Both the position numbers and the translations under genes were made by a program. Shown here piece after piece: positions 3,776 through 42,465 of a stretch of 61,801 bases of DNA. Within the stretch, counting starts at the first letter, position 1. Each line of letters opens with the position of its first letter. Source of the DNA: a virus; IMG/VR virus record IMGVR_UViG_3300049914_000132, positions 1 to 61,801 of that record; one strand, 5' to 3'. Under the pieces are notes generated by a model. That model was not told where the DNA came from. It worked only from the letters and a program-made list of their open reading frames with translations, and searched no databases.

Positions 3776-4231
3776 ATGGACCCAACACTTCAACAGCACT
3801 CAGACATCACATTCCTTGCACTGACCATCTGGAGAGAAGCACGTGGAGAAGGGCACACCTGCAAAGTTGGCGTCGCTTGCTCGATCTTAAACAGGGTCAA
3901 GAATCCAAAGTGGTGGGGAGACAGTGTCTCTGCCGTGCTCTTCAAGAAATGGCAGTACTCTTCACTCACTGATCCGAAAGACAGACAGCTCACGACCTGG
4001 CCATCCGTTGCTGACGTACGATGGGAAGAGTGCTTGCAGATAGCCACGGCTGCTCTTGCAGGAACGCTTGTGAACCCTGTCGCAGGTGCAGACTCGTACT
4101 ACGACGTGTCTATCAGTGCTCCAAGATGGGCAAAGCCTGAGATGTTCGTTGCACAGTTGGACAGGATCAGGTTCTTCAATACAGACAATGATCACGAGCT
4201 GGACGAAACGCACGTAGCCCCTACAACGTAA
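3776..4231 (+). CDS. Endolysin: SleB-type cell wall hydrolase
   Basis: 151 residues; the ATG at 3776 is preceded by TTGGAG. The sequence contains the Hydrolase_2 (SleB) signature: LALTIWREARGEG near residues 15-27, then VGVACSILNRVKNPKWWG and, further on, a DSYYDVSISAPRWA block. Glu in REARGEG matches the catalytic glutamate of this family, which cleaves peptidoglycan in spore germination enzymes and many phage endolysins. No signal peptide is present, so it would need the holin encoded next to reach the wall. The genes that follow (membrane protein, nested spanins) confirm a lysis cassette. Confidence 0.88.
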   Translation: MDPTLQQHSDITFLALTIWREARGEGHTCKVGVACSILNRVKNPKWWGDSVSAVLFKKWQYSSLTDPKDRQLTTWPSVADVRWEECLQIATAALAGTLVNPVAGADSYYDVSISAPRWAKPEMFVAQLDRIRFFNTDNDHELDETHVAPTT

Positions 4232-4243
4232 AGGAGCAGCACA

Positions 4244-4672
4244 ATGAAGAAGATCAACTACCTCATGTTCACACTCGTTTTCGCCATCGCCATCCTCTGC
4301 GGATACGAGATCGCACTTGCTCAGACTGCGCCTGCACAGCCTGATGCTGGAACTCTCATCGGAACTCTCATCTCGGCAATCCAGGGAAGGAACTGGATCG
4401 TCCTGGTTGGAGTCGTTCTTTCTCTGGTGATCTACGGTCTCCGAACGTGGGGAGGCTCTATCGTTCCGTGGTTCAAGACGAGCCGAGGGGGTGTTGCGCT
4501 CACGCTCATTGTGACCATTGTCGGAACTCTTGCGACCGTGCTCGCCGCAGGAAAGTTCAACTGGAGCTCGCTGATAGACGCTCTGGCTGTTGCAATGACG
4601 ACGGCCGGAGGCTACTCCATGTTCCGCAAGCTCTTCTTCCCGGATGATGTTGCTCCTGCTGTGAAGGTCTAG
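4244..4672 (+). CDS. Holin candidate
   Basis: 142 residues starting 12 bases after the endolysin stop, with AAGGAGCA as Shine-Dalgarno. The N-terminus MKKINYLMFTLVFAIAILCGYEIALAQ looks like a signal peptide or first membrane segment. It is followed by two clear hydrophobic segments (WIVLVGVVLSLVIYGL near residue 50 and GVALTLIVTIVGTLATVLAAG near 83-103) and a short charged tail. Two or three membrane spans, small size and a position directly between endolysin and spanins fit a holin. No family was recognised by sequence, so this rests on topology and context. Confidence 0.65.
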   Translation: MKKINYLMFTLVFAIAILCGYEIALAQTAPAQPDAGTLIGTLISAIQGRNWIVLVGVVLSLVIYGLRTWGGSIVPWFKTSRGGVALTLIVTIVGTLATVLAAGKFNWSSLIDALAVAMTTAGGYSMFRKLFFPDDVAPAVKV

Positions 4673-4675
4673 AAC

Positions 4676-5023
4676 ATGCCTTGGGCTTCTGTGATCATCG
4701 GCTTGGTTGGTGCTCTAGGCTGGGCGTTTGGCTTGTGGCAGCTTGCGCGTGCATCGTCCGCAAAGAAGGACGTAACCGCGCAAACCAAACGAGCCGATGA
4801 CGCAGAAGCTTCATTCGCGCAGGCTTTGGCAGACAAGGAAGATCAGAAGTCCAGATACGAGAAATTCATAGCCGAGCTGAAGAAAGAGGTTTCGGCTTTG
4901 GAGGTTCTGTTCAATGCGCACGCTGACGCTGATGCTTTGCGTGACCGTCTCCGCTTGCTGCTTGATTGGCAAGCCCAAGCCAACCCCACCACAGGAGGGC
5001 TGCCTCAAAAGCCCCCTACCTAA
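4676..5023 (+). CDS. i-spanin-like inner-membrane protein (Rz-like)
   Basis: 115 residues: one N-terminal membrane segment (WASVIIGLVGALGWAFGLW, residues 3-21) followed by a long charged helix (about residues 28-95) with heptad-like leucine and alanine spacing that should form a coiled coil in the periplasm. This is the architecture of i-spanins, which sit in the inner membrane and bind an outer-membrane lipoprotein to fuse the two membranes at lysis. A lipoprotein gene is nested out of frame in its 3' end, as in the classical lambda Rz/Rz1 arrangement. Confidence 0.78.
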   Translation: MPWASVIIGLVGALGWAFGLWQLARASSAKKDVTAQTKRADDAEASFAQALADKEDQKSRYEKFIAELKKEVSALEVLFNAHADADALRDRLRLLLDWQAQANPTTGGLPQKPPT

Positions 5024-8473: not shown

Positions 8474-8645
8474 TCCCCAACATTCCAAGTATCTTTGATG
8501 GGTGATCGGCACAGTCAACAATTGTGCAGTTTGCGCAGCTCACTCTGCCTGTAGCTAGAACCTTACGAGCAAACTCGACTCGATTGTCTAGATCTCCCTT
8601 CTTGTTATCTTTAGCCTTCCGTGTCTTTTTCTTCTGCTCAGTCAT
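8466..8645 (-). CDS. Small lysine-rich protein with CANCTIVDC motif (59 aa)
   Basis: 59 residues: MTEQKKKTRKAKDNKKG, then a short helix and SCANCTIVDCADH. The ATG overlaps by one base the stop of the VWA gene (TGATG) and its 3' end overlaps the next start by eight bases, so it fits the operon exactly. Three cysteines and a histidine within 13 residues could bind a metal. The strongly basic N-terminus suggests nucleic acid contact. Confidence 0.6.
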   Translation of the reverse strand: MTEQKKKTRKAKDNKKGDLDNRVEFARKVLATGRVSCANCTIVDCADHPSKILGMLGNE

Positions 8646-9859
8646 CAGTCAACCTCCACTTGCTCACCCCAATCACATGGAGCTCTCTTGTAGCGTCCGA
8701 CCAACAGCCAGATGACTCGGATGCCTACAGGAGCTTTCTCAGGACAAGTACCGTCGCCATCCGTCGCGAAGATTAGGATCTCCGGACGCGCAACTTTGCC
8801 CGGCTTCTCCGCGAGAGAAAACACAGGTGTAAAATCGGTCCCACCTCCACCTTTCATCAGTGGAATGATCTCTTCCCACCTAGTGACCTTCTTTACCTCG
8901 TGCACGTCCGCGTCTGCTGCGAGGAACGTAACAGGTGCTCCAGTTGCCTTGATAGCTCCTGCACCCTCTCTCAGGGCAGCAGTCAGCTCTTCTTTGCCCA
9001 TCGAGCCTGACGTGTCACAGACGAACCAGACCTCTGGGACGGACTTGCGCAGGGCTGGCAGGATAGGCTTGCCGACTCCGTAGCCGAGCCCTGCTTGACG
9101 CCTGGAGGGCTGGTCGTAGCGATAGTCCACAGCACCCATCTTCCAGGCGACGGCCATCTTTGTGGCCCTGGAGAGCTTCTGTTGCCATGGAATCTTCGGA
9201 GTGCCTAGCTGCTCGTCTGCCCATCTCAGGTAGGCTTCAGGCACGTTTCCTCGACTTTTGGCTGACTGAATCTCATGTGCTACCTGCTTCCGGATGCGCT
9301 CTTTCTCAGTCGCAGATCGCCCACCTTCCGCTTGCCCTTCTGGCTCGTCTGGCATGCTGTGTCCGCCTGCTGAGCCACACCAGCCCTGACCGACGCTGGG
9401 CTTGCTTGGCGCTTTGGAGTGCCCCCCTTGCCCATCGCTGCATTGCTTCCGGATGTCGTGGTAATACTGCTCAGCCAGACCGCCATCTTTCAGACCGAAA
9501 TCTGCTGGCTTGATACCCGTACCGTGCGGAAACATTGCGCCTGCTGAAATCATGTCGTCGTTGATCTCAAGGTCTCCGGCAATGTTGAAGAGTGTGTGAT
9601 CCAGACTAGCCTTTTCACAGCGCTCCGCGTGCCTTCGGAGCACGTGCCAACATTCATGTTCCAGAGCGCAGGCAATCCCGGACACATCCCACTCCTGAAT
9701 GGCTTGTGGGTCCCAGAGCAACAGCCATTCCTTTGTGACACCCACAGTCCCGAGCCCTGGAGTTTCTCTCGGCACGAGTGCGTACAGTACGCTGGACAGA
9801 TACGGTGAGCGCTGACGCGCCTTGAGCCGACCTGCCATCAGTTTCTCAATAGGCTTCAT
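8645..9859 (-). CDS. VWA-like metallopeptidase domain protein (DUF2201-like)
   Basis: 404 residues. The N-terminal part carries H68-E69-C-W-H72 (ALEHECWHVLRRH), a zinc-peptidase-type HExxH site. A Gly/Ser/Gln-rich linker follows near residues 145-190, and the C-terminal 130 residues form a von Willebrand A domain with a MIDAS: DTSGSMG (D-x-S-x-S), the threonine in GGGTDFTP, and ATDGDG. This putative metallopeptidase + VWA layout is known as DUF2201 and normally works with a MoxR-type AAA ATPase. Such an ATPase is encoded two genes upstream here. The pair likely forms a remodelling or co-chelatase-like machine; its phage substrate is unknown. Confidence 0.82.
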   Translation of the reverse strand: MKPIEKLMAGRLKARQRSPYLSSVLYALVPRETPGLGTVGVTKEWLLLWDPQAIQEWDVSGIACALEHECWHVLRRHAERCEKASLDHTLFNIAGDLEINDDMISAGAMFPHGTGIKPADFGLKDGGLAEQYYHDIRKQCSDGQGGHSKAPSKPSVGQGWCGSAGGHSMPDEPEGQAEGGRSATEKERIRKQVAHEIQSAKSRGNVPEAYLRWADEQLGTPKIPWQQKLSRATKMAVAWKMGAVDYRYDQPSRRQAGLGYGVGKPILPALRKSVPEVWFVCDTSGSMGKEELTAALREGAGAIKATGAPVTFLAADADVHEVKKVTRWEEIIPLMKGGGGTDFTPVFSLAEKPGKVARPEILIFATDGDGTCPEKAPVGIRVIWLLVGRYKRAPCDWGEQVEVD

Positions 9860-28891: not shown

Positions 28892-31510
28892 GTGAGCGGG
28901 CTTCTACCATTGTATCCAGATCCGTTGAAACCTGCTGAAGAGGGCGGGTTTGCTTCGTCGGTAGAACTCGCTCACCCGCTGTCTATTGATCACAATTGTA
29001 GTCGGTGTCAGTTGTGCCACAAGTACAATCCTCGGAGCATCTGCATAGGGCCGACTTCAGCAGCTCCGGAAGGCTCGTCTATCAGCTTGTACGATGGCAT
29101 CGTTGAGGGCGCTGCGCTGCTTGTAGGCGAAGGCCCAGGGAAAGAAGAAGACGCCATAGGGAAACCATTTGTGGGCGTGTCGGGCAAGAAGCTTCGACAG
29201 CTTGTGCACAGATACACCAGAGCGCCCGTCGTCTTTGACAACGCTCTCAGGTGTTGGTACACAAAGATAGACAGCAGGTACATCTCAGCGTGTAGAGGGT
29301 TCCTTTCCAAGACGATCTCGGATGGCAAGCCTGAGCGCATCATTACGCTAGGCTCCGCAGCTGCTCTTTCTGTGCTTGGCAGGACCATCAAGCCTTTGAG
29401 TGCTCGTCGTGCTGTTGGTTGGATCGCTAAGACACAGACACCTGTCTACATGGTGATGCACCCAGCAGCAGCACTTCGGAACAGGTTTTTGATGAAGATG
29501 TTCGAGGAAGACCTTGAATGGGCGCTCACTGTACCGGAGCCTCCATATCCGCCTCCAGATAAATACACAATGCGAATTGTGGAGTCTGAAGCTGAAGCAC
29601 TGGAAGCGGAGGCTGATCTTTCTTGTGCTTCATGGTTCGCATTCGACTGCGAAGCGTCTGGAAGGCTATTCGACACAGACTACTCAGTCTTCAACGTTTC
29701 GTGCTGTGCCAAAGATTCCACGTTCGCTTGGGTTTGGGATTCAGCAGCGCTTGAGAACCCGAGAGTCTTGGAGCCCTTGCTGCGCTTGCTCAGGAACCCA
29801 AAGATCGGAAAGGGCGGACATAACGTAAAGTACGACTCGCTTGCTATAGAGTGTGCTTTTGGTTCGAAGGTTGTCAACGCAGACCATGACACGCTGCTCG
29901 ATGGCCACATTTATGATCCTGAGATGGATGGTGGTCTAGACGCAATGGCTGAGCTTGTTGGGATGGGCGGACACAAGCTCGAAGCTATGACGAACATGGC
30001 GCGCAACTTGGATTGGTTTACTAAGCGGAAAAAGAAGACTGATGCTCGCCAGACGACACTGTTCGAGGATCCAATTGAAGACCTTCATTTGCCTCTTGGC
30101 GTAGAGGCTTCCATTCGTCTAGGTGGTGACATTGAAAACTACAAGTACGCGCTGATAGATCATGACATTGTGTGCAGGTACAACGCACGAGATGCTGTTG
30201 TGACTGCACGACTGCGTGAGCACATCCGACCAGAGATAGAGGCTGTTCCTGAGCTACGTAAGGTGAGTGATGATCTTGCGCACCCTGCAATGCGTGCATT
30301 CACACAGATGGAATCATGGGGGATTTGTGTTAGCCATGAGGCTGTCACGAGTGTTGGATTGTATCTTGATCATGCTCTTGCAGAAGTCAAGAACAGGCTG
30401 TCGGTGTACAAGATAGACCCGAACAGTAATGACGAAGTTGGGAAGCTGCTCTACGATACGTTGAAGCTCAGGTGTGGGAAGTTGACTCCAAAGGGCTCAA
30501 GGTCTGTAGACAAGGAAGCGCTTACCTTGATCAAGGGTGAGCATCCGGTAGTCGTAGACATCTTGGAGAACAGAAGGCTGACCAAGATGAAGGGGACGTA
30601 CGTTGATGGTTTCTATCCACACATCAAGGCAGACGGACGCATTCATCCGAACGTGCATGTGGATGGCGCTCGTACGGGAAGAGCTTCAATAAGTGATCCT
30701 CCTTTGCACCAGGTTCCTCGTGCTTCTGACAGCACTGAAGGGAAAATGCTACGCGATATGTTCGTTGCTCCTCCAGGATGCCTCCTAGTTCAGGCCGACT
30801 ATCGCCAGTTGGAGTACAGGATTGCAGCAGCACTGTCCGGTGACATTGAGATGATCAAGGTGATTCGTTCTGGTAAAGACTTTCACCTTGGAACGGCGGA
30901 ACTCATTGCTCAGATTATGTGGGGTATCCAGCCAGAGGAAATACAAAAACCACATAGAACGACCGCGAAAACGCTCAACTTCGCCTTGATCTTTGGCATG
31001 GCAGACAAGACGCTTGCTGCACGATTGGGGTGCACGATTGAGGAGGCTACCAGGGTTCGAGAAGCTGTGCTCGGTAAGTACAAGATGCTTGCCCGATGGA
31101 TCTCGGATCACATTGCGTACACCAAACGGAGTGGGGTGTCTTGGACGTGGTGGAATGGTGGAAATGCGCGGCGTCGTCCACTGTGGCGCATAGCTTCTCA
31201 GGACAGTGAAGAGCGCTCTACTGCTGAGCATGGCTCGATCAACACACCAATCCAAGGAACAGCAGCAGATTACGACACGGCGTCCGTCATCGAGATTACG
31301 AACTGGATCCTAGAAGAGGGTCTACCTTTGAAGCTGGTCCTTGCTGTACACGACTCAATAGTGTTGGAGGTTCCGGAGCAATACGTGTCAGAGGCTGTGT
31401 ATATGTTGCACAAGGTCATGACATCTTGGCCTGTTCCGAACGATGTGCCTCTAGACGTAGACATAGAGGTTGGAACGTCTTGGGGATCGCTTGAGGAGTA
31501 CAACGACTGA
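28892..31510 (+). CDS. polA: Fusion of uracil-DNA-glycosylase-like domain with family A DNA polymerase
   Basis: 872 residues from GTG. Residues 25-215 form a family 4/5-type UDG domain: cysteines of an Fe-S site (NCSRCQLC, SIC), motif 1 GEGPGKEED near 79, and motif 3 MHPAA near 189. The 3'-5' exonuclease domain follows with FAFDCEAS (about 251), GHNVKYDS and RYNARDAV. The polymerase has motif A QADYRQLEYR (634), motif B HRTTAKTLNFALIFG (688) and motif C LAVHDSIVLEV (818). Motif C has HDS where most family A enzymes have HDE. UDG-PolA fusions are known in some phages such as SPO1. This is the main replicative polymerase. Confidence 0.88.
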   Translation: MSGLLPLYPDPLKPAEEGGFASSVELAHPLSIDHNCSRCQLCHKYNPRSICIGPTSAAPEGSSISLYDGIVEGAALLVGEGPGKEEDAIGKPFVGVSGKKLRQLVHRYTRAPVVFDNALRCWYTKIDSRYISACRGFLSKTISDGKPERIITLGSAAALSVLGRTIKPLSARRAVGWIAKTQTPVYMVMHPAAALRNRFLMKMFEEDLEWALTVPEPPYPPPDKYTMRIVESEAEALEAEADLSCASWFAFDCEASGRLFDTDYSVFNVSCCAKDSTFAWVWDSAALENPRVLEPLLRLLRNPKIGKGGHNVKYDSLAIECAFGSKVVNADHDTLLDGHIYDPEMDGGLDAMAELVGMGGHKLEAMTNMARNLDWFTKRKKKTDARQTTLFEDPIEDLHLPLGVEASIRLGGDIENYKYALIDHDIVCRYNARDAVVTARLREHIRPEIEAVPELRKVSDDLAHPAMRAFTQMESWGICVSHEAVTSVGLYLDHALAEVKNRLSVYKIDPNSNDEVGKLLYDTLKLRCGKLTPKGSRSVDKEALTLIKGEHPVVVDILENRRLTKMKGTYVDGFYPHIKADGRIHPNVHVDGARTGRASISDPPLHQVPRASDSTEGKMLRDMFVAPPGCLLVQADYRQLEYRIAAALSGDIEMIKVIRSGKDFHLGTAELIAQIMWGIQPEEIQKPHRTTAKTLNFALIFGMADKTLAARLGCTIEEATRVREAVLGKYKMLARWISDHIAYTKRSGVSWTWWNGGNARRRPLWRIASQDSEERSTAEHGSINTPIQGTAADYDTASVIEITNWILEEGLPLKLVLAVHDSIVLEVPEQYVSEAVYMLHKVMTSWPVPNDVPLDVDIEVGTSWGSLEEYND

Positions 31511-33961: not shown

Positions 33962-34237
33962 AAGGTTTGCTTGGGCTGTTCTTGTTTCGCTGCTAAACGG
34001 CTTACACGATCCAGCACTTTAGTCTGGCGTGGCAGTCCAGGCAATCGATTTGCTGGGAGGTCACTTGGAATGACGAGGTACGGAAAAGATCGTACAGGTC
34101 GTGGCCTGATGCGAGCCCTAAAATCCTCCAATCTGGCTTTTCGCTCTCACGGCGATGCTGCTCGAAGCTTGTGGATCGTTCAGTGACCAGACCAATCCGC
34201 GCGGTGACCCCCAGCAATTGTTTTGCCAGCAAGCAAG
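33962..34237 (+). ncRNA. Hairpin-rich noncoding region upstream of array B1 (candidate RNA)
   Basis: About 275 bases without a plausible gene. Several stems can be drawn by eye: GTACG/CGTAC with ACG/CGT outside it (34071-34110), GCGAGCC with GGCTTTTCGC (about 34111-34144), and GGAT/ATCC extended by wobble pairs (about 34172-34200). The right end blends into degenerate copies of the 18-nt repeat (GTTTTGCCA at 34220). IS110 elements carry a noncoding bridge RNA next to the transposase gene, so a functional RNA here is conceivable, but nothing proves transcription. Confidence 0.3.
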
Positions 34238-34382
34238 AGGAAGCCATATAGTATGAGCGTGCCAGACAGATGAAAGTAGCCCATTGATCGGGAGCGAGCC
34301 AGGATGTGAAAGCAGTCCATGATTCGAGAGCGTGCCATGTGTTAGGAGATGACCATATACCGTAAGCAAAATTGAAGTCAAC
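34238..34382. repeat. 18-nt-period array B1 (eight units)
   Basis: Units start AGGAAGCCA, AGCGTGCCA, AGTAGCCCA, AGCGAGCCA, AGCAGTCCA, AGCGTGCCA, AGATGACCA and AGCAAAATT, each followed by nine bases that differ (for example TATAGTATG, GGATGTGAA, TGTGTTAGG). One extra A occurs at 34274; otherwise the 18-nt register is exact. Degenerate units continue to the left. The array ends 28 bases before the IS110-like gene. Confidence 0.85.
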
Positions 34383-34410
34383 CACGAAGCAAAAGAGGCT
34401 GGAGATCATT

Positions 34411-35274
34411 ATGGACGGAGAGGCAAGAGAAGCACTGCGTATCACAGTCAGGCACTTCTACGACATTCAGCAAATCAGGATACAGCACTCTGGGAGAATT
34501 GCCAGGAAGTCGGCGACGAACGAGGCGGCAATATCGTCTGAGCACCAGGCTATGTTCTCTGCACAGGTCAAGCGCTTGAAAGCGTCTGAAGCTGATGCAC
34601 TGCTTGACGTCAAAGAAAAGCTCCAATCCTTTGAGCTCTACAGACAGGTTCTTTCTGTGGATGAGGATCGCTGGAAGGGGCTTGGTCCTACAATGTCCGC
34701 TGTCATTCTAGCAGAGGTTGACATTGAGCGTTGTGAAACCCCTTCTGCTCTCTGGCGGTATGCAGGGCTGTCAACAGTCCCATGGAAGCGCTGCAAGCAG
34801 TGCAACCGACTTGCAGATCTACCTTTCGACGTTGTTGATGGTGACATTCTGATCAAGCAAAGCATGAGCAAAGAGTACAAGCACGTCAGGAAGAAAGAGA
34901 ACGAAAAGGGGTGCGATCTGATATGGCTTAAAGAGAATCAGCTATACGACAGTGGGCGCTCTGAGTTCTTGGTGAAGGGTGAGAAGAGACACTTCAATCT
35001 GTTCCTCAAGACCAAGCTTCTTGGCGTGCTTGCTCCGGGTTTTCTGAAGGCGAAGAACCCGGTTTGGAGGAAGGTCTATGATGACTACAAAAACAGGCTG
35101 ATCTCTGCTGGACGTGGTACTTCTCCAGGGCACATTAACAATTCGGCAATACGCTACATGATCAAAATGTTCCTGCTCAATCTGTGGATGGAATGGCGTA
35201 CTTTTGCGAGGCTTCCTGTACGACCGAGCTACCACGAGGAGAAGTTAGGACATGTACACGCAGTTGGTGTATAG
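34411..35274 (+). CDS. IS110-transposase C-terminal-domain-like protein
   Basis: 287 residues from the ATG at 34411 (GGAG six bases upstream). Residues 1-90 are charged helix without the DEDD RuvC-like domain that starts true IS110 transposases. Then comes KGLGPTMSAVILAEVDIERC followed by ETPSALWRYAGL, the helix-hairpin-helix core of the Transposase_20 domain (consensus G-I/V-G-x-x-x-A-x-x-x-x-E...F/S-x-x-x-x-x-x-Y-A-G-L). A CKQC knuckle follows. The end (INNSAIRYMIKMFLLNLWME ... PVRPSYHEEKLGH) is a second conserved-looking block. It lies between arrays B1 and B2 and between the SSB and RecA-like genes, with no terminal repeats visible, so it behaves as a resident phage gene rather than an active insertion sequence. 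Confidence 0.7.
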   Translation: MDGEAREALRITVRHFYDIQQIRIQHSGRIARKSATNEAAISSEHQAMFSAQVKRLKASEADALLDVKEKLQSFELYRQVLSVDEDRWKGLGPTMSAVILAEVDIERCETPSALWRYAGLSTVPWKRCKQCNRLADLPFDVVDGDILIKQSMSKEYKHVRKKENEKGCDLIWLKENQLYDSGRSEFLVKGEKRHFNLFLKTKLLGVLAPGFLKAKNPVWRKVYDDYKNRLISAGRGTSPGHINNSAIRYMIKMFLLNLWMEWRTFARLPVRPSYHEEKLGHVHAVGV

Positions 35275-35448
35275 CCAGGTCGCCTAAGCAAACCATGAAA
35301 AGAGTGCGAGCCATGTGTTGGGAGCAAACCAGGAACTCAGAGCGAGCCACTATGTCCGATACACACAGAAAAACCGTGCGAGTCAAAGACTAAGCGTAAA
35401 CCAAAATGCGCAAGCGAGCCAGCATACACGAGCAAACCATAGAAAGTC
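35269..35448. repeat. 18-nt-period array B2 (ten units, exactly 180 nt)
   Basis: Ten units in perfect register. First halves: GTATAGCCA, AGCAAACCA, TGCGAGCCA, AGCAAACCA, AGCGAGCCA, ATACACACA, TGCGAGTCA, CGTAAACCA, AGCGAGCCA, AGCAAACCA. Second halves all differ (TGAAAAGAG, TGTGTTGGG, GGAACTCAG, CTATGTCCG and so on). The first unit overlaps the last six bases of the IS110-like gene, and seven bases of an eleventh unit (AGCGATC) lead directly into the ATG of the RecA-like gene. Confidence 0.9.
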
Positions 35449-35455
35449 AGCGATC

Positions 35456-36496
35456 ATGCCCAAAGTGACAACACTGAATCGGATCAAAGATGCAGTCAAC
35501 AAGAAGCTAGGCAGGAACTCGGCTGCTGTGCTTGCTTCAAGTGGTGAGATTGAGTCTGAGGTTCGCAACGTCATTCCAACAGGAATTTCCGTTGTGGACA
35601 ACGTGCTCTGCTCAGATCTTGGTGGTTTGCCATGTGGTCGTGTGACGGAGCTGTATGGGCCAAGTGGTGTAGGAAAAACGTCGTTCGTGCAGCAAGCGTT
35701 GGCAGGTGTGCAGCGCGAAGGCGGCGCAGCCATCTACAATGATGACGAGAAGTCTTTGGACATGGAAAGGATCAAGGTGTTCGGCCTTGATCTCGACAAC
35801 TGCCTTGTCTTGCAGCCCCGAAATGCAGAAGAAAGCATCACTGGGATGGTGGAAGCGATCAATGCTTTACTTGATGGTGCTCAGCCCTCTCTTCTGGTCT
35901 GGGATTCGATTGCTGCGTCTGTCCCGCAGACAGAACTAGATGGTGAGATTGGGGATGCAAACATTGGAGTCAAGGGCCGACTGATGTCTCAAGCCATGCG
36001 TGCGCTTGTTCCTTTGGCTGTGCGCAAGCAAGTCGCTCTCCTGTTCGTGAACCAAACTCGCATGAAGATTGGCGTGCGGTTCGGGGACCCTGAGATCACG
36101 ACAGGTGGAGAAGCTCTGAAGTTTGCGGTCAGTCTGAAGATCAGGCTAGGGTCTGGCAAGCCCTATGTGGTTGGGCGTCAAGCACTCGCGAAAGACGTTC
36201 CATTTGTTGTACGGAAGTCGAGGTTTTCACCACCTGGTTCTCGTGTTGCTGTGCGCCTCAATTTCGCACGAGGCTGGGACGAGGTATGGAGCACTCTTGA
36301 TTACGCGAAGCATCTAGGGCTGACCGAAAAGACAGCCCGTGGTTGGAATGCGTACTTAGGGGCGTTGGAGGCTTTGGAGTGGGAAGTGCCTTGGACCGCA
36401 AATGAGCAGATGGCCAGCTTTGCAGAAAAGGAGCTGGGTGACGCAAAGGCAAAAGCAAAGGACGAGGGTGACGAAGAGGACGATGTAGACAACTAG
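35456..36496 (+). CDS. RecA/UvsX-family recombinase
   Basis: 346 residues. Walker A GPSGVGKTS near 68, a YNDDEKSLD segment, Walker B LLVWDSIAASVP near 145, and the L2 region LLFVNQTRMKIGVRFGDPEI followed by TTGGEALKFAVSLKIRL, which is a close RecA match (INQxRxKIGVxFGxPExTTGGxALKF). It should form filaments on ssDNA and drive strand exchange. The ATG follows array B2 directly and no Shine-Dalgarno is evident, which is unusual for this phage. The acidic C-terminus (DEGDEEDDVDN) is also RecA-like. Confidence 0.88.
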   Translation: MPKVTTLNRIKDAVNKKLGRNSAAVLASSGEIESEVRNVIPTGISVVDNVLCSDLGGLPCGRVTELYGPSGVGKTSFVQQALAGVQREGGAAIYNDDEKSLDMERIKVFGLDLDNCLVLQPRNAEESITGMVEAINALLDGAQPSLLVWDSIAASVPQTELDGEIGDANIGVKGRLMSQAMRALVPLAVRKQVALLFVNQTRMKIGVRFGDPEITTGGEALKFAVSLKIRLGSGKPYVVGRQALAKDVPFVVRKSRFSPPGSRVAVRLNFARGWDEVWSTLDYAKHLGLTEKTARGWNAYLGALEALEWEVPWTANEQMASFAEKELGDAKAKAKDEGDEEDDVDN

Positions 36497-36515
36497 CAGT
36501 AACACGGAGGATGAA

Positions 36516-36983
36516 ATGGCAGAGAAGACAGTTGTGCGGATCAATGCAGAGGCCGAAAAGATCGCGAAGTCATTCATGAACTCTCGCGGTTTAGACTCAA
36601 TAGGCGAAGCGGTGGAGAAGCTCATTGGAACAGCTTCTAGCCGTCTTTCCGCACTTGCAAAGTACGCGACCAAGCAGGGGAAGATAGCAAAGCCGAAGGG
36701 GGCTAAGGCTGAGAAAGCAGCCAAGACCAAGAAGACGAAGGCTCCGAAGAAAGCGGGACTTGCTGCCAAGCTGTCCAAAGGCCCGAAGCCTGAGAAGAAG
36801 AGCACATCGAAGCTGGGGGGCAATCGCAAGAGAGTCAAGGTGACAACTGAGCCTGTAGACTTCAGGGTCAACACTGGAGCACCAAGCGCAGAGAATCATG
36901 ATCGATTGGAAACGCACAACGTTGATGAAGCAAACAAGGGAGCAGAGCTGGACGCCGACTTGGCAGCAGGCACAGTGGACTGA
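36516..36983 (+). CDS. Basic histone-H1-like protein
   Basis: 155 residues, GGAGG upstream. Residues 1-50 (VVRINAEAEKIAKSFMNSRG) look like a short helical DNA-binding domain, followed by a Lys/Ala/Pro-rich stretch from 55 to 110 (KPKGAKAEKAAKTKKTKAPK) resembling eukaryotic H1 tails and the C-terminal tails of some bacterial HU proteins. The last 40 residues are acidic. Probably binds DNA nonspecifically, perhaps condensing or protecting it during recombination. Confidence 0.6.
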   Translation: MAEKTVVRINAEAEKIAKSFMNSRGLDSIGEAVEKLIGTASSRLSALAKYATKQGKIAKPKGAKAEKAAKTKKTKAPKKAGLAAKLSKGPKPEKKSTSKLGGNRKRVKVTTEPVDFRVNTGAPSAENHDRLETHNVDEANKGAELDADLAAGTVD

Positions 36984-37022
36984 AACAAATACAGACACCA
37001 GCAAAAGAAAGGACGGATCGAA

Positions 37023-37241
37023 ATGGCTTCAAAGAAAAAGACACTTGTAGAGCTGTTTGCTTTGAACTTCGCCAAGCTTCGTGCAGAGCGCAAGCTCACA
37101 CAGCAAAAGCTAGCAGAAGAGATGGGCATGTCAGTCTCGTACGTTTCGATGTTGGAACGTGGGGAGCGCACTCCGCCGCTGAGCACGCTGGAAAAGATCG
37201 GTCAGGCGTTGGGTGTTGATCCTTTGGAACTGCTTGAGTAG
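37023..37241 (+). CDS. Cro/CI-type HTH regulator
   Basis: 72 residues, AAAGGACGG upstream. LNFAKLRAERKLTQQKLAEE, MGMSVSYVSMLERGERTPPL, STLEKIGQALGVDPLELL is a textbook HTH_3 (Xre) domain: helix 2 QQKLAEEMG, helix 3 VSYVSMLERG. It has no other domain. It could recognise the GCAC-N5-GTGC dyads of the window; that pairing is a guess. Confidence 0.8.
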   Translation: MASKKKTLVELFALNFAKLRAERKLTQQKLAEEMGMSVSYVSMLERGERTPPLSTLEKIGQALGVDPLELLE

Positions 37242-37280
37242 TTTGTTCTGCTACTGTGGTGGAGAACACTAGGAAGGAAG

Positions 37281-37459
37281 AGCGCACCAAAGTTCGCGAG
37301 CAAACCAAGAAGCACAAGTGGGCCATAAGTCAGAGCAAACCAAGACGCGCGATCGAGTCATATCTCAGGAGTAAACCATCAAGTAAGAGTGTGCCATAGT
37401 CCATGAGCACACCAGACACGAAGATCGAGCCAAGGTCTATGAGTACACCAGATAGTGAT
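37281..37459. repeat. 18-nt-period array B3 (ten units)
   Basis: Units start AGCGCACCA, AGCAAACCA, AGTGGGCCA, AGCAAACCA, ATCGAGTCA, AGTAAACCA, AGTGTGCCA, AGCACACCA, ATCGAGCCA, AGTACACCA. All are 18 nt except the third (17). Variable halves differ in every unit. It follows the HTH gene and ends 22 bases before the SbcD-like ATG, whose GGAGG Shine-Dalgarno lies in the gap. Reading frames through it contain stops, so it is not coding. Confidence 0.88.
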
Positions 37460-37481
37460 AGCGCATTGTTGGAGGCTGGAA

Positions 37482-38615
37482 ATGAGAATCGCATTTTGCA
37501 GTGATGTGCATGTAGCAAACCACAAGCAGAACGGTGGGGCTGTAGTGTCAGGGCTCAATGAAAGGTGCCAAGACACCATCAGCGTTCTTCGCCAGGCAGT
37601 GCTGAAAGCGATCACTGAAAACTGCGATGCTCTTGTGATTGCAGGTGATCTATTTGATTCAGCAAAGCCAGAGCCCCAGATCATTGCAGAGGTACAAAGG
37701 TCTTTTGTTGGGACCAGTCTGTCCATCTACGTCATGAAAGGCAATCATGATGAGACAAGCTCTGCTCCTGGTGATCACGCTTTGGGGCCGTTAGCACCAC
37801 TTGGCCCAGCTGTTCGTGTGATTGAACAGCCTGTCCTTGCTCAAGCTTTGTCTGATGGAGACCTGATTCTTGTTCCATTCAGGAGTGGGCTTGCATCTAC
37901 ATGGCTGTCTGAGGCAATCTCTTCTACAGCCGAGGTGCAACGTACAGACCGCACGAAAAGCGGTAGACGTCCAGCCTCCCGCCCGCGTGCGCTCGCGTTG
38001 CACCTTGGCCTAACTGATGATCGTATGGCACCATGGCTAAGGGAATCGAGTGGTGCTGTTCTTGCTTCACTCGTCCAGTCTTTGTGCAAAGAGCACAACA
38101 TCGTCTTTGCAGCATCGGGGGACTTCCACGAGTACAAGCTGTGGTCTGAGAAGCCTTGGGTTGTACAGATAGGGGCTCTTTGTCCCACAGGCTGGAGAGA
38201 CCAAGGGTACGAACAGTATGGATCACTGTGCATCTGGGACTCGAAGGCCAAGAGCTACGAACGTCATGTGATCCCAGGTCCACGCTTTTTGTTCAATCCC
38301 AGAGCGCACGATCTTGTTGTTGCGAAGAGAGCTGGCCACAAGATCTATGTGCGGTACACTGCAAGCAACATGGATGAGAAGTTAGCTCTGAAAGAGCGCT
38401 TGGAAGCGGATCTCAAGTCGGGACGAGTGCATTTTGGCTCTGTCGAGATAGATCAGACATCTACCATCGTTGCTGCTCGTTCTGCTGCTATGGCTGCAAA
38501 GTCGTCGAAGACACGTGATGACGCCTTGGATGCCTTTGTTCGGAACATGCCTCTGGAAGATGGCGTAGACAGAGCTGATGTGTTGGAGCGATCCAAGAGC
38601 TATCTTGAAAAATGA
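37482..38615 (+). CDS. SbcD/Mre11-like nuclease (T4 gp47-like)
   Basis: 377 residues from the ATG at 37482 (GGAGG eight bases upstream). Metallophosphoesterase motifs are in order: FCSDVHV, VIAGDLFD, MKGNHDE, ALHLGL and ASGDFHEYK. This is the nuclease subunit that partners with the SbcC/Rad50-type ATPase encoded next. In phages the pair processes DNA ends for recombination and host DNA degradation. Confidence 0.87.
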   Translation: MRIAFCSDVHVANHKQNGGAVVSGLNERCQDTISVLRQAVLKAITENCDALVIAGDLFDSAKPEPQIIAEVQRSFVGTSLSIYVMKGNHDETSSAPGDHALGPLAPLGPAVRVIEQPVLAQALSDGDLILVPFRSGLASTWLSEAISSTAEVQRTDRTKSGRRPASRPRALALHLGLTDDRMAPWLRESSGAVLASLVQSLCKEHNIVFAASGDFHEYKLWSEKPWVVQIGALCPTGWRDQGYEQYGSLCIWDSKAKSYERHVIPGPRFLFNPRAHDLVVAKRAGHKIYVRYTASNMDEKLALKERLEADLKSGRVHFGSVEIDQTSTIVAARSAAMAAKSSKTRDDALDAFVRNMPLEDGVDRADVLERSKSYLEK

Positions 38616-38628
38616 GCAGGAGATCCTG

Positions 38629-40359
38629 ATGAGCATTGCGATCGGTAAGGTAGAACTGAGAAACCTGTTTCTACACAAGTCTACAGATCTTGTGCTCCCT
38701 AAGCGTGGGATCGTTCTTGTCACAGGACCAAACGGCTCTGGGAAAAGCGGTCTGATTGAGGGGGTGAGTGTGGCGGTCTTTGGCAAGACCCTACGAGGAA
38801 CGCCCCCTTGGAGCCAGGGTCATGCGTGCAGTGCGACAGCCTATGCGTCTGGGGCTCACCCCTTGGTGGTCACCAGGGCAAACGCCAAGGGCAAGACTAC
38901 GCTGGCCTGGGGGCCACCTGGCAAGGGGCCAGGAACCACCTACGAGAGCACCACCAAGGCGCAGGAAGCCCTAGAAGCTGTGGTCGGGAGCTGGAACGTA
39001 TGGCGCAGGTCTGCCGTATTTAGCAGCTCGGACGCTTCTCACTTCACCTTGGCCAGGGATGGCGAGCGGAAGGCTTTGTTGGAGGAGATCCTAGGCTTGA
39101 GTGAATTCGACATAGCTCTTTCACACTGTCGATCTGACCTTAAGTATGCTGAAGCGGCTTTGGACAGTGCCAGACGGGAAGAGGAGAAATGGTCCATTCA
39201 GCTAGCTGAACGATCAAAGCACTTGGAAGAGCTGCAAGGGATGAACCTGATTGAGCCGTCTAACCCTATTGGCGTAGTCAAGTTAGACACGGAGCCATTG
39301 CAGAATGAAGTGACTCGTCTGCATGCTCTCGTTAAGGGCTGTGAGAAAGATCAAGCAGATCTTAGGAAACAGCACTTGACAATCTCTTCTACAGGTGGGG
39401 AAGACAAGGCAAAGCTCGCTGAGCTAACACGCCGATCGTCCATGCTGTCAAAGGAAAAGTGTCCGACTTGCTTGCAGCCTATTAGTTCAGAAACGCGCAG
39501 AAGGCTTGATGAGGAGATAGGCAAGGTCAGGCTGGCTGCTGAAAAGGCAGAGCTTGCTTCAAGGAAAGAGTTCGCCAGTTTGAATGATGGCATGATCGAC
39601 AGTGATTCTGAGCTGGAAGCACTTAACGCTAAGTTAAGTGCCGCTCGGAGAGAACTGACGGAGGCTGAGCAAACGAACGTGGCAGAGCAGCAACGATATG
39701 ACAATGCTCTAGTGGTGTATGAGCGGGATCTTGCTGCGTACGAGAGCTTGGCTGAAAGGCTGAGCAGAGCTGATGCTGCTGTGCATGAGGCTTCGGCTGC
39801 TCAGTTTGACGCTGCTGTTGGGTTGGGGAAGCATGAGAAGGGGGTTGCTGTCCTTCGAGCTGTGGAGCAAGTGCTCGGTTTGCGAGGCTTGAGAGCGCAT
39901 GTGCTTGGGAGTGCTCTTTCTGGGTTGGAAGCTGTTGCGAATCATTGGCTTGCTCGGATCTGTGGAAACAATGAACTCAGGCTGGAGCTGAAGCCTTACA
40001 CCGAACAAAAGACTGGGGGCATAGCGGACGCCATCTCGCTTGAAGTGGTAGGCGCAGGGGGTGGCTATGGCTACCGAGCAAGCAGCGGTGGAGAACGCAG
40101 GCGCATAGACATCGCTCTGCTTCTTGCGCTTGCAGAGGTTGCAGGCGCAGCACATAGGTCAGCAGAAGACTCGACGCTGTTCTTTGACGAGTGCATGGAC
40201 GCTCTCGACGAAGATGGAGCGGACGCAGTAGCATCAGCATTGTACGACTTGGCAAAGAACAGAGCTGTGCTTGTGATCACGCACTCTGAGGTTCTTTCTA
40301 GTAGGATCGAGGCGGACGTTAGACTTAGAGTAGAGAATGGAACTGTAATCACTCTTTGA
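38629..40359 (+). CDS. SbcC/Rad50-like ATPase (T4 gp46-like)
   Basis: 576 residues from the ATG at 38629 (AGGAG six bases upstream). Walker A GPNGSGKSG near residue 34; two long coiled-coil arms (about 170-270 and 295-400) around the zinc hook CPTCLQ near 279; ABC signature YRASSGGERRRIDIALLLAL; Walker B TLFFDECMDALDEDG; H-loop LVITHSE. Forms a complex with the SbcD-like nuclease. Overall shorter than bacterial SbcC, as usual in phages. Confidence 0.9.
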   Translation: MSIAIGKVELRNLFLHKSTDLVLPKRGIVLVTGPNGSGKSGLIEGVSVAVFGKTLRGTPPWSQGHACSATAYASGAHPLVVTRANAKGKTTLAWGPPGKGPGTTYESTTKAQEALEAVVGSWNVWRRSAVFSSSDASHFTLARDGERKALLEEILGLSEFDIALSHCRSDLKYAEAALDSARREEEKWSIQLAERSKHLEELQGMNLIEPSNPIGVVKLDTEPLQNEVTRLHALVKGCEKDQADLRKQHLTISSTGGEDKAKLAELTRRSSMLSKEKCPTCLQPISSETRRRLDEEIGKVRLAAEKAELASRKEFASLNDGMIDSDSELEALNAKLSAARRELTEAEQTNVAEQQRYDNALVVYERDLAAYESLAERLSRADAAVHEASAAQFDAAVGLGKHEKGVAVLRAVEQVLGLRGLRAHVLGSALSGLEAVANHWLARICGNNELRLELKPYTEQKTGGIADAISLEVVGAGGGYGYRASSGGERRRIDIALLLALAEVAGAAHRSAEDSTLFFDECMDALDEDGADAVASALYDLAKNRAVLVITHSEVLSSRIEADVRLRVENGTVITL

Positions 40360-40369
40360 AAGAGGGCAC

Positions 40370-41044
40370 ATGGCTAAGAAAAAAGCAGGGCCTGAACAAG
40401 TACGCATTGAGTACATGCCGCTTTCCGAGCTTGTACCTGCGGAGAGAAACCCGAAGCAGCACAACCTAGACGCTCTTGGCGATTCTATCGTGCGATGGGG
40501 CTATGTTCAGCCGGTCACAATCAATGAGGCTACAGGGCGCCTCGTGGCAGGGCATGGGCGCACAGAGAAGCTTGCTCACATGAAAGCTGCTGGGGAGGAT
40601 GCACCTGGCCGAGTACAGGTACGGAAGAAGGACGGGGAATGGCTTGTTCCAGTGGTCAGGGGGGTGAGCTTTGCCAATGATCAGGAAGCTGAAGCCTACT
40701 TGCTGGCGGACAACAGGCTCACGGAGATTGGCCATTGGGACGAAGAGCTGCTCGGCCAGGTCTTGAGCGAGTTCGCAGAGGTTGGCCCTGAGTCTTTTGT
40801 CGGCCTTGGCTGGGACATGCAAGATGTGGTGACCATGGAGACCGAGAAGGAGCTTGCTGATCTCAAGATGGCACCTGTTGGGATTGCTGCTGAGAACACG
40901 GCAGAGGATCCGCGCAGCAAGCAGTTCTGGGTCTGGGCTGCTTGTGAGAGCGCTGAGCAAATGCAAGAGGTCGTTGCTAGGTTCGGCAAGCCAGGGAAGG
41001 GCAAGACCAGCAGAGAATTGGACATCGCTTTGATCATGAGGTGA
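40370..41044 (+). CDS. ParB-like nuclease domain protein
   Basis: 224 residues. MPLSELVPAERNPKQHNLDA, then LGDSIVRWGYVQPVTINEAT, GRLVAGHGRTEKLA is the ParB/Srx N-terminal domain as found in phage and prophage proteins linked to DNA methylases; the G-H-G-R-T motif is the GxxR nucleotide box. ANDQEAEAYLLADNRLTEIG follows, also typical. The C-terminus is acidic then basic. It may act in DNA modification or as a nuclease. The radical SAM gene overlaps its end by context. Confidence 0.8.
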   Translation: MAKKKAGPEQVRIEYMPLSELVPAERNPKQHNLDALGDSIVRWGYVQPVTINEATGRLVAGHGRTEKLAHMKAAGEDAPGRVQVRKKDGEWLVPVVRGVSFANDQEAEAYLLADNRLTEIGHWDEELLGQVLSEFAEVGPESFVGLGWDMQDVVTMETEKELADLKMAPVGIAAENTAEDPRSKQFWVWAACESAEQMQEVVARFGKPGKGKTSRELDIALIMR

Positions 41045-41046
41045 TT

Positions 41047-42465
41047 ATGGCTTGTGGTAACTGCTCTTTGTGCGGTACTCGAACGTATTGCCAGCCGCTC
41101 AAGGGCAAGCCCAAGTCATATGGGGGCTACAGGTTCACAGCCGATTGCTTTGATTGTGCAATCCAGCTTTCATTGGACACGTACTCAGCGTGCAGTTTTG
41201 ACTGTTTGTATTGTTTCAGTAATTACTTAGCGCGAAACCCTGAGCTGAAGAAGCGGAATCCGAACGCGAAACCGTCTGACGGTACAGTTGGGGCGATGAG
41301 CCCAGCTGTGTTGGAAGACATACTCGATCTGAGCCGGACAGGTGGGGCTCGCGAGGTCTTTCGCAGCTACATTCGGCATTCCAAAGGGCGCAAGGTTATT
41401 CAGTGGGGTGCTCTTGGTGATCCGTTTGACAACATAGAGCGCTGGCAGCGGGTAGGTCTTCAGCTCATTCCGATCTTTCAGAAGTACAACCAGCCGACTC
41501 GAATAAGCACAAAAGGTGGGCTGCTCCTTCAGGACAAGGAGTATCTATCCACCATCGCCAAGTACCCAGAGATCTTCTGGTTCGCGTTCTCCACGATAAC
41601 GATCGACGATGAGGTGCTTGCTTCTGTGGATAGGATGGCGCCAAACGCAACAGAGCGCCTGAAGGCTATGAAGATCCTGACGTCAATGGGCTGTAGGGCG
41701 AGCTTGCGCATGCGTCCGATACTCAAGAACGTGACGGATACCACAGCAAAGCATCCGAACGCATGGCGCGAGCTGATGCACAGGGCACGCGAAGCAGGTG
41801 CGGAAGCTGTCAGTATGGAGTTTGTCTTTGTGCCTGGAGCAGAACGAGCAGGGGTCAAGTGGAGATGGGACGAGATAGAGAAGATCACACGCTTTCCGTA
41901 CAGGAAGTTCTACAAGAGCACGAGTGATTGCTTCAGTGCATGCTTGCGCAGCAGCAGAGCGTGGAAAGAAGAGCTGACGTTCGCCATACGAGATGAGGCG
42001 CACAAGCTGGGCATGGTCTTTTCAATCAGTGATCCGCATTGGAAAGAGCTGAACGACACAGGATGCTGCTGTGGGATGACTGACACTGATCCTGTGTTTG
42101 GTATCTGGGAGAAGAAGCAAGCGTGCCAGGCATTGCTCACGGCCAAGGCTGACTCAGAGCACGGTGGGGATGGCCTGATATACATCGAAGACGTGATTCC
42201 GGATTGGGCTCGTAAGGTGACGGCGAGGAGCTTGATCTGTGTGACAGGGCCGAAAGCGATCACAGCGAATAGGCTAAGCTTTGCTGATTGGCATCATGTG
42301 TCCATCTGGAACAACCCAGGCAAGGCGCGCGGGCCTAGGATCTACTTTGGGGGCGTCCTTGAGCCTGTTGGGATGGATGTGAATAAGAACCTGGTCTACA
42401 AGTATGCTGCTCGGGGTAGGTCATTCAAGGACTACGGATGGAATGTAGGGGACGAGCATGAGTGA
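41047..42465 (+). CDS. Radical SAM enzyme
   Basis: 472 residues from the ATG at 41047 (GAGGTG four bases before; GTG at 41041 is an alternative). SACSFDCLYCFSNYL near residues 48-62 is the CxxxCxxC [4Fe-4S]/SAM motif. An N-terminal cysteine group (CGNCSLCGTRTYC, DCFDC) and a later GCCCGM could hold extra clusters. VIQWGALGDPFDNIE and STKGGLL match the SPL/radical SAM barrel with its G-x-x-x-D-P-x-x-x-x-E. The substrate is unknown; DNA or nucleotide modification or photoproduct repair are possible. The gene sits in the recombination/repair region next to a ParB-like protein. Confidence 0.8.
   Translation: MACGNCSLCGTRTYCQPLKGKPKSYGGYRFTADCFDCAIQLSLDTYSACSFDCLYCFSNYLARNPELKKRNPNAKPSDGTVGAMSPAVLEDILDLSRTGGAREVFRSYIRHSKGRKVIQWGALGDPFDNIERWQRVGLQLIPIFQKYNQPTRISTKGGLLLQDKEYLSTIAKYPEIFWFAFSTITIDDEVLASVDRMAPNATERLKAMKILTSMGCRASLRMRPILKNVTDTTAKHPNAWRELMHRAREAGAEAVSMEFVFVPGAERAGVKWRWDEIEKITRFPYRKFYKSTSDCFSACLRSSRAWKEELTFAIRDEAHKLGMVFSISDPHWKELNDTGCCCGMTDTDPVFGIWEKKQACQALLTAKADSEHGGDGLIYIEDVIPDWARKVTARSLICVTGPKAITANRLSFADWHHVSIWNNPGKARGPRIYFGGVLEPVGMDVNKNLVYKYAARGRSFKDYGWNVGDEHE

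What the first reader, a model, noticed from the sequence alone, without database searches (positions are those of the whole stretch)
34202..37459. Three intergenic arrays with an exact 18-nt period flanking an IS110-like gene
About 28 units in arrays B1, B2 and B3. Each unit is a semi-conserved 9-mer (AGCAAACCA or AGCGAGCCA and variants; NNNNNNCCA almost always) followed by nine bases that differ in every unit. The register holds over 180 bases in B2 and slips by one base only twice in all. All three lie in gaps before recombination-related genes. The plan looks like a miniature repeat-spacer array but is far below CRISPR size. It is not helically phased (18 bp is about 1.7 turns), which argues against simple cooperative protein binding on one face of B-DNA. 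It could specify short RNAs, an array of sites for the IS110-like protein, or a nucleation tract.
Basis: partly seen in the sequence, partly recalled or inferred. Interest (0 to 1): 0.92.

Follow-up and report, generated by a model that had tools for sequence, protein, structure and literature searches.

The report
Phage TIGR-Tas guide-RNA arrays
The 18-base repeats are a short, scattered example of TIGR-Tas, an RNA-guided DNA-binding system first described in 2025, here in a bacterial virus; it is a known kind of system, but a sister virus shows its guide units being swapped between arrays, which bears on the open question of how such arrays change.

Summary
Three non-coding arrays of 9-nt repeat plus 9-nt variable half stand far above chance. 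The 18-nt period is half of the true unit: two repeat types alternate (edge AGCGAGCCA, loop AGCAAACCA; p = 5e-5), giving 36-nt units of edge, spacer A, loop, spacer B. This is the anatomy of a TIGR array. The 'IS110-like' gene is a Tas protein: NCBIfam TIGR_Tas_endo 117.7 bits (cut-off 100), PDB profile hits to TasH (4e-53) and TasR (1e-46), and a model that aligns with them at Z about 20. It lacks their nuclease domains, so it is a solo-Nop TasA. A scan for the DNA pattern alone found seven more phage arrays, each in a record encoding a Tas homologue; a protein search found arrays beside Tas in seven of eight bacterial loci. New here: three short, degenerate arrays spread through a recombination gene cluster, and a 90%-identical sister whose middle array carries a unit related to this phage's third array, evidence of exchange between arrays. 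No targets were found. New member of a known kind.

The parts
34220..34373 (+). TIGR array B1: 4 dual-spacer units (GCAAGCAAG/TATAGTATG, GACAGATGA/ATTGATCGGG, GGATGTGAA/TGATTCGAG, TGTGTTAGG/TATACCGTA); loop repeats degenerate
34411..35274 (+). tasA: solo-Nop TIGR-associated protein, 287 aa from ATG 34411 with GGAG six bases before it; the ORF listed from TTG 34372 overlaps the end of B1
   Evidence: NCBIfam NF052498.1; PDB profile hits TasH/TasR; fold; start
35269..35457 (+). TIGR array B2: 5 dual-spacer units; first truncated edge GTATAGCCA overlaps the tasA stop codon (TAG 35272-35274), last truncated edge runs into the uvsX ATG (35456)
35456..36496 (+). uvsX / RecA-like recombinase, directly downstream of B2 (context)
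   Evidence: PF00154 3e-54, phrog_97
36516..36983 (+). lysine-rich protein of unknown family between uvsX and B3 (context)
   Evidence: no family hit in Pfam, PHROGs, NCBIfam
37023..37241 (+). Cro/CI-type HTH protein, 72 aa (context)
   Evidence: PF01381 4e-18
37281..37468 (+). TIGR array B3: 5 dual-spacer units (AAGTTCGCG/AGAAGCACA, TAAGTCAG/AGACGCGCG, TATCTCAGG/TCAAGTAAG, TAGTCCATG/GACACGAAG, AGGTCTATG/GATAGTGAT)
37482..38615 (+). SbcD-like nuclease subunit downstream of B3; SbcC-like partner follows at 38578-40359 (context)
   Evidence: phrog_100 and phrog_77, PF00149

Best explanation
The three arrays are dual-repeat TIGR arrays and the 'IS110-like' gene between B1 and B2 is their effector, a nuclease-less TasA (solo Nop domain) carried by a tailed phage. 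By analogy with the published systems, the arrays are transcribed with the recombination gene cluster, and the transcript is cut in the middle of each edge repeat, with Tas required and a host RNase suspected, into 36-nt tigRNAs (half edge, spacer A, loop repeat, spacer B, half edge). A TasA dimer holds the box C (CCA) and box D-like ends of edge and loop repeat, and the two 9-nt spacers pair with opposite strands of a site reading spacer A followed by the reverse complement of spacer B. With no nuclease domain, TasA would bind, unwind and sharply bend that DNA rather than cut it, most likely to hinder replication or expression of a competing element or host locus. Shown here: array anatomy, effector family and fold, linkage of array and effector in both directions, one case of likely unit exchange between arrays. 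Inferred from the published system: transcription, processing, RNA binding, DNA targeting. Not known: targets and benefit to the phage. The stated confidence is for the identification as TIGR-TasA; the role (hindering a competitor) alone I would put near 0.4.
For: Arrays far above shuffles and only at these three places. Two alternating repeat types, p = 5e-5; box C columns carry 1.6-2.2 bits while spacer columns average 0.26 bits. Edge repeats keep a 3-6 pair (C-G or U-G) in 60-100% of copies per record, loop repeats in 0-37%, as in the published edge repeat. Effector: NF052498.1 TIGR_Tas_endo 117.7 bits, cut-off 100, model also matched by all ten aligned homologues; profile hits TasH 4e-53 and TasR 1.2e-46, IS621 only 2.7e-05; predicted model (mean pLDDT 73) aligns with TasH Z 20.8 and TasR Z 19.4 against IS621 15.5, starting at TasH residue about 62-66 and TasR residue 108, after their nuclease domains. 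Linkage: a DNA pattern scan that knew nothing of the protein gave seven clean non-coding arrays (L117, L114, L079, L030, L013, L070, L011), each in a record with a Tas homologue; a protein search in bacterial genomes gave 8 loci, 7 with arrays beside Tas. Published definition: PMC12045711.
Against: No rho-independent terminator was found after the arrays, unlike typical published loci. Repeats are more degenerate than in most relatives, so some units may be decayed. No RNA data. The function 'hinders a competitor' has no direct support: target searches for two units were at chance level and the phage's own genome has no full-length target.
Confidence: 0.96

Rival explanations
1. A remnant IS110 element: a decayed insertion sequence whose transposase C-terminal domain remains, with unrelated repeats nearby.
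For: Sub-threshold Pfam Transposase_20 match (20.2 bits, cut-off 21.3) and PHROG label 'transposase'. IS110 and Tas share the Nop-type RNA-binding domain (IS621 Z 15.5).
Against: Tas models fit far better; no DEDD domain in the Pfam scan; the protein is 90% identical in a sister phage in the same gene context; arrays accompany homologues in many unrelated genomes.
Confidence: 0.01
2. Protein-binding operator or nucleation arrays, for example sites for the small Cro/CI-type protein encoded just before B3, or for UvsX, with no guide RNA.
For: An HTH gene lies next to B3 and the arrays lie upstream of genes of the replication-recombination cluster.
Against: Two strictly alternating repeat types on one strand, spacers of fixed length, and linkage to Tas across records. 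HTH or UvsX neighbours were not looked for in every relative.
Confidence: 0.015
3. A degenerating TIGR-Tas system: the family assignment is right but the degenerate arrays are mostly inactive here.
For: Loop repeats of B1 lack consensus, only a little over half of the chained units in the window have an exact CCA, and no terminators were found.
Against: tasA is intact with a good ribosome-binding site; between sister phages repeats differ at 12 of 180 positions but spacers at 31 of 162, so repeats look maintained; units appear to have been exchanged recently.
Confidence: 0.15
4. Self-regulation: the tigRNAs direct TasA to sites in the phage's own genome to regulate its genes.
For: In this phage alone, the published target geometry gives slightly better own-genome matches than re-paired spacers (mean 14.33 against 13.67 of 18; other geometries 13.4-13.7).
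Against: No match above 15 of 18 here and no clear excess in nine other TIGR phage records; one weak excess among ten records may be chance.
Confidence: 0.07

Closest known systems
TIGR-TasA dual-repeat systems (Faure et al. 2025, PMC12045711)
   Same: Solo-Nop effector; alternating edge and loop repeats of 9 nt with 9-nt spacers; box C CCA in both; extra pair in edge repeats; arrays upstream and downstream of tas; phage host.
   Different: Three short arrays of 4-5 units spread over 3.2 kb with tasA, uvsX and two small genes between them, more degenerate repeats, no terminator found, box D mostly AG rather than UG. No ParB-like partner was identified in the flanking genes scanned.
TIGR-TasR and TasH (PDB 9mty, 9vzx, 21kl)
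   Same: Nop fold (Z 19-21), same array logic.
   Different: No RuvC or HNH nuclease domain in the window protein.
IS110-family transposases with bridge RNA (IS621, PDB 8wt6)
   Same: Shared Nop-type RNA-binding domain.
   Different: No DEDD catalytic domain found; has arrays of small guides instead of one bridge RNA.
CRISPR arrays
   Same: Repeat-spacer layout; change by units.
   Different: Two alternating 9-nt repeats and split 9-nt spacers; no adaptation genes seen among the flanking genes scanned.
Archaeal and eukaryotic box C/D snoRNPs (Nop5)
   Same: Nop domain and box C/D-like guide layout, as stated in PMC12045711.
   Different: No fibrillarin or L7 partner is expected for Tas; not tested further here.

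Membership tests
TIGR-Tas (dual-repeat) | Nop-domain Tas effector encoded at the array | tested here: met
   NF052498.1 117.7 bits over cut-off 100; PDB profile and fold hits to TasH/TasR
TIGR-Tas (dual-repeat) | Two distinct alternating 8-12-nt repeats (edge, loop) with about 9-nt spacers | tested here: met
   9-nt repeats alternate, permutation p = 5e-5; 26 of 28 spacers are 9 nt
TIGR-Tas (dual-repeat) | Box C (CCA) and box D motifs shared by edge and loop repeats | tested here: met
   CCA gives the strongest columns; the D position reads AG or TG here, TG in relative L070. UG is the TasR consensus; the paper says the motifs can diverge but covary between edge and loop.
TIGR-Tas (dual-repeat) | Extra base pair in edge but not loop repeats | tested here: met
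   3-6 pair in 71% of window edges against 27% of loops; 60-100% against 0-37% in relatives. Counts for the window include a few flanking units.
TIGR-Tas (dual-repeat) | Array starts and ends with truncated edge repeats | tested here: met
   B2 starts GTATAGCCA and ends AGCGATCA; B1 starts GTTTTGCCA and ends AGCAAAATT; B3 ends AGCGCATTG
TIGR-Tas (dual-repeat) | Rho-independent terminator after the array (typical, not required) | tested here: not met
   No terminator-like site after B1, B2 or B3 on the + strand; described as typical rather than defining, and these arrays lie inside a gene cluster
TIGR-Tas (dual-repeat) | Processing to 36-nt tigRNA bound by Tas | not testable with these tools
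   Needs small-RNA sequencing; spacing predicts 36 nt
TIGR-Tas (dual-repeat) | tigRNA-directed tandem-spacer DNA targeting | tested here: inconclusive
   No targets above chance in own genome, in fetched loci or in IMG/VR for two units
TasA subclass | Nop domain without HNH or RuvC nuclease domain | tested here: met
   287 aa; alignment begins at TasH residue 62-66 and TasR residue 108; no nuclease domain hit in Pfam
IS110 transposase | DEDD RuvC-like catalytic domain plus Transposase_20 domain | tested here: not met
   Only a sub-threshold Transposase_20 match, 20.2 bits against 21.3, no DEDD domain
CRISPR array | One repeat of about 25-36 nt with similar-sized spacers | tested here: not met
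   9-nt alternating repeats and 9-nt spacers

The most novel reading that the evidence does not exclude
TIGR arrays can be spread over a phage genome and exchange whole 36-nt units between arrays by recombination, so guide sets evolve by shuffling of existing units and spacer re-pairing rather than by capture of foreign DNA; in this phage the arrays are built into the uvsX/SbcCD recombination cluster, whose products could drive that exchange.
Probability: 0.4. Interest if true: 0.65.

Novelty: new member of a known kind. Interest (0 to 1): 0.45.

Why it matters
It puts a first-reader puzzle into a recently described family of RNA-guided DNA-binding systems, and shows that short, scattered, degenerate arrays of that family can be recognised from DNA alone. 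[quoted passage not shown] the sister-phage comparison gives direct, if single, evidence for one route, exchange of units between arrays. That can be tested in larger sets of related phages. The role of the nuclease-less TasA form remains open.

Tried and rejected
Rejected: coding repeat. The B2 frame is open through the array in this phage and the sister, but B1 and B3 frames contain stops, and about 30 free codons stay open by chance roughly one time in four (my estimate), so no weight is given. Rejected: remnant IS110. Rejected: helical phasing as an argument. Led nowhere: own-genome targets in ten records under four geometries; cross-targets in 1.6 Mb of fetched loci, 4 true against 2 re-paired hits at 17 of 18; exact IMG/VR target scans, 2 and 0 hits against 1 for a re-paired control; relatives of the SbcD-like protein in IMG/VR; phage records with megablast or with the Tas protein by tblastn; the A1 alignment in genome contigs (replaced by A4). 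My chain finder adds unconserved units at array ends, so array limits were set by eye from the sequence.

Full report
What is there. The window is a 61,801-base viral record of a tailed phage (terminase large subunit and portal) with a replication and recombination cluster. Reading 33.2-40.4 kb: gp32-like single-strand binding protein, array B1, the 'IS110-like' gene, array B2, uvsX, an unknown lysine-rich protein, a Cro/CI-type protein, array B3, SbcD-like and SbcC-like genes.

Chain scores for the three arrays are 57, 60 and 71; the best chain in each of twenty shuffles of the window scores 19-29 and nothing else in the window exceeds 22.6. What it missed is that the repeats come in two kinds that alternate, AGCGAGCCA and AGCAAACCA and variants (p = 5e-5), so the unit is 36 nt with two 9-nt spacers.

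Relatives from the DNA alone. A scan of IMG/VR with four repeats in 18-nt register gave 120 stretches. Many are repeats in coding sequence, but seven are non-coding arrays with the same alternation, with up to 55 units: L117, L114, L079, L030, L013, L011 and L070. Six of these loci contain a homologue of the window's IS110-like protein, found by iterated profile search, and the seventh (L079) has one elsewhere on its contig, found with an alignment that did not include it. In the other direction, a search of bacterial genomes with a protein alignment gave eight loci, seven of them with such an array beside the gene (for L159 only part of the array was printed). Array and protein are therefore linked in both directions.

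Identity. This is the anatomy of TIGR-Tas as published in 2025 (PMC12045711): alternating edge and loop repeats of 8-12 nt, 9-nt spacers, box C CCA in both, and a Nop-domain effector related to IS110. The protein passes NCBIfam's TIGR_Tas_endo cut-off, and all ten aligned homologues match that model. Its profile hits solved TasH and TasR at 4e-53 and 1e-46 and IS621 only at 3e-5. The predicted model (mean pLDDT 73, low confidence in an insertion at about 126-195 of the model) aligns with TasH at Z 20.8 and TasR at Z 19.4, above IS621 at 15.5, and begins where their nuclease domains end. It is a TasA, the nuclease-less form; the word 'endonuclease' in the NCBIfam name should not be taken over. 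The start is best placed at ATG 34411, behind a GGAG, not at the TTG that overlaps B1. The edge-specific base pair described for TasR is also seen: 60-100% of edge repeats per record can form a 3-6 pair, loop repeats 0-37%.

Layout. In this phage and its sister the first truncated edge of B2 contains the tasA stop codon, and the same overlap occurs in L117 and L070. The last truncated edge of B2 runs into the uvsX start codon. No terminator follows any array, so they are probably transcribed as part of the gene cluster; cutting the B2 transcript would then separate tasA from uvsX (inference). Scattered arrays are not unique: record G003 has at least six array loci on both strands, some 5-16 kb from its tas gene.

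Change between sister phages. L002 is a 4.3-kb contig whose Tas is 90% identical. Repeats of B1 and B2 differ at 12 of 180 positions, spacers at 31 of 162. The differences are clustered: 11 of 18 spacers have 0 or 1 change, while five (B1 unit 3 and the front of B2) have 4 to 6. Spacer GGAACTCAG occurs in both B2 arrays but one unit apart and with a different partner. The second unit of the sister's B2 (GAGTTCGGG/AGAGCACAA) is closest to the first unit of this phage's B3 (AAGTTCGCG/AGAAGCACA), edit distance 4; none of 16,440 pairs from unrelated records is that close. In G003 near-identical units also occur in different places. The simplest reading is unit exchange between arrays by recombination. 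The sister's own B3 is not on its contig, so the direction is unknown, and this rests on one sister.

Targets. With the published geometry (spacer A followed by reverse complement of spacer B, gap 0-2; my derivation from the reported 3' overhangs) no record has an own-genome match beyond what re-paired spacers give, apart from a weak excess in this phage (14.33 against 13.67 of 18). Cross-searches and IMG/VR scans were at chance. Two 9-nt spacers carry too little information for a collection of this size unless the host is known.

Verdict. Known kind of system, securely identified; mechanism inferred from the published members; biological role open. Interest comes from the unit exchange and the dispersed layout rather than from the repeats as such.

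Noticed in passing
L137-L139 (G003 = IMGVR_UViG_3300041409_000460): A 56.8-kb phage record with about 66 dual-spacer units in at least six TIGR array loci on both strands, some 5-16 kb from its tas gene; several spacers there equal the edge repeat itself (AGCGAGCCG).
   Followed up: partly
L134:3420-4106 and 4106-4813 (G002): A ParB-like gene directly upstream of and overlapping tas, with a TIGR array before it: the tasParB-tasA operon of the published work.
   Followed up: partly
L146:8717-9086 (G008 about 25.8 kb): A TIGR-like array with repeats AGCGCGCCA and AGCCACCCA-like lies about 24 kb from the only tas gene found on its contig (1013-1885); the contig may be incomplete.
   Followed up: no
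window 28892-31510: Family A DNA polymerase with an N-terminal uracil-DNA-glycosylase-like domain (PF03167, 2.9e-14) in one reading frame.
   Followed up: no
window 41041-42465: Radical SAM protein shortly downstream of the SbcC-like gene.
   Followed up: no
window 8645-9859 (- strand): Putative metallopeptidase with VWA-like domain (DUF2201) in a phage genome.
   Followed up: no
window 35315-35455: The reading frame of uvsX stays open upstream through array B2 here and in L002 (56 codons), giving a hexapeptide-like repeat if translated; judged chance.
   Followed up: partly
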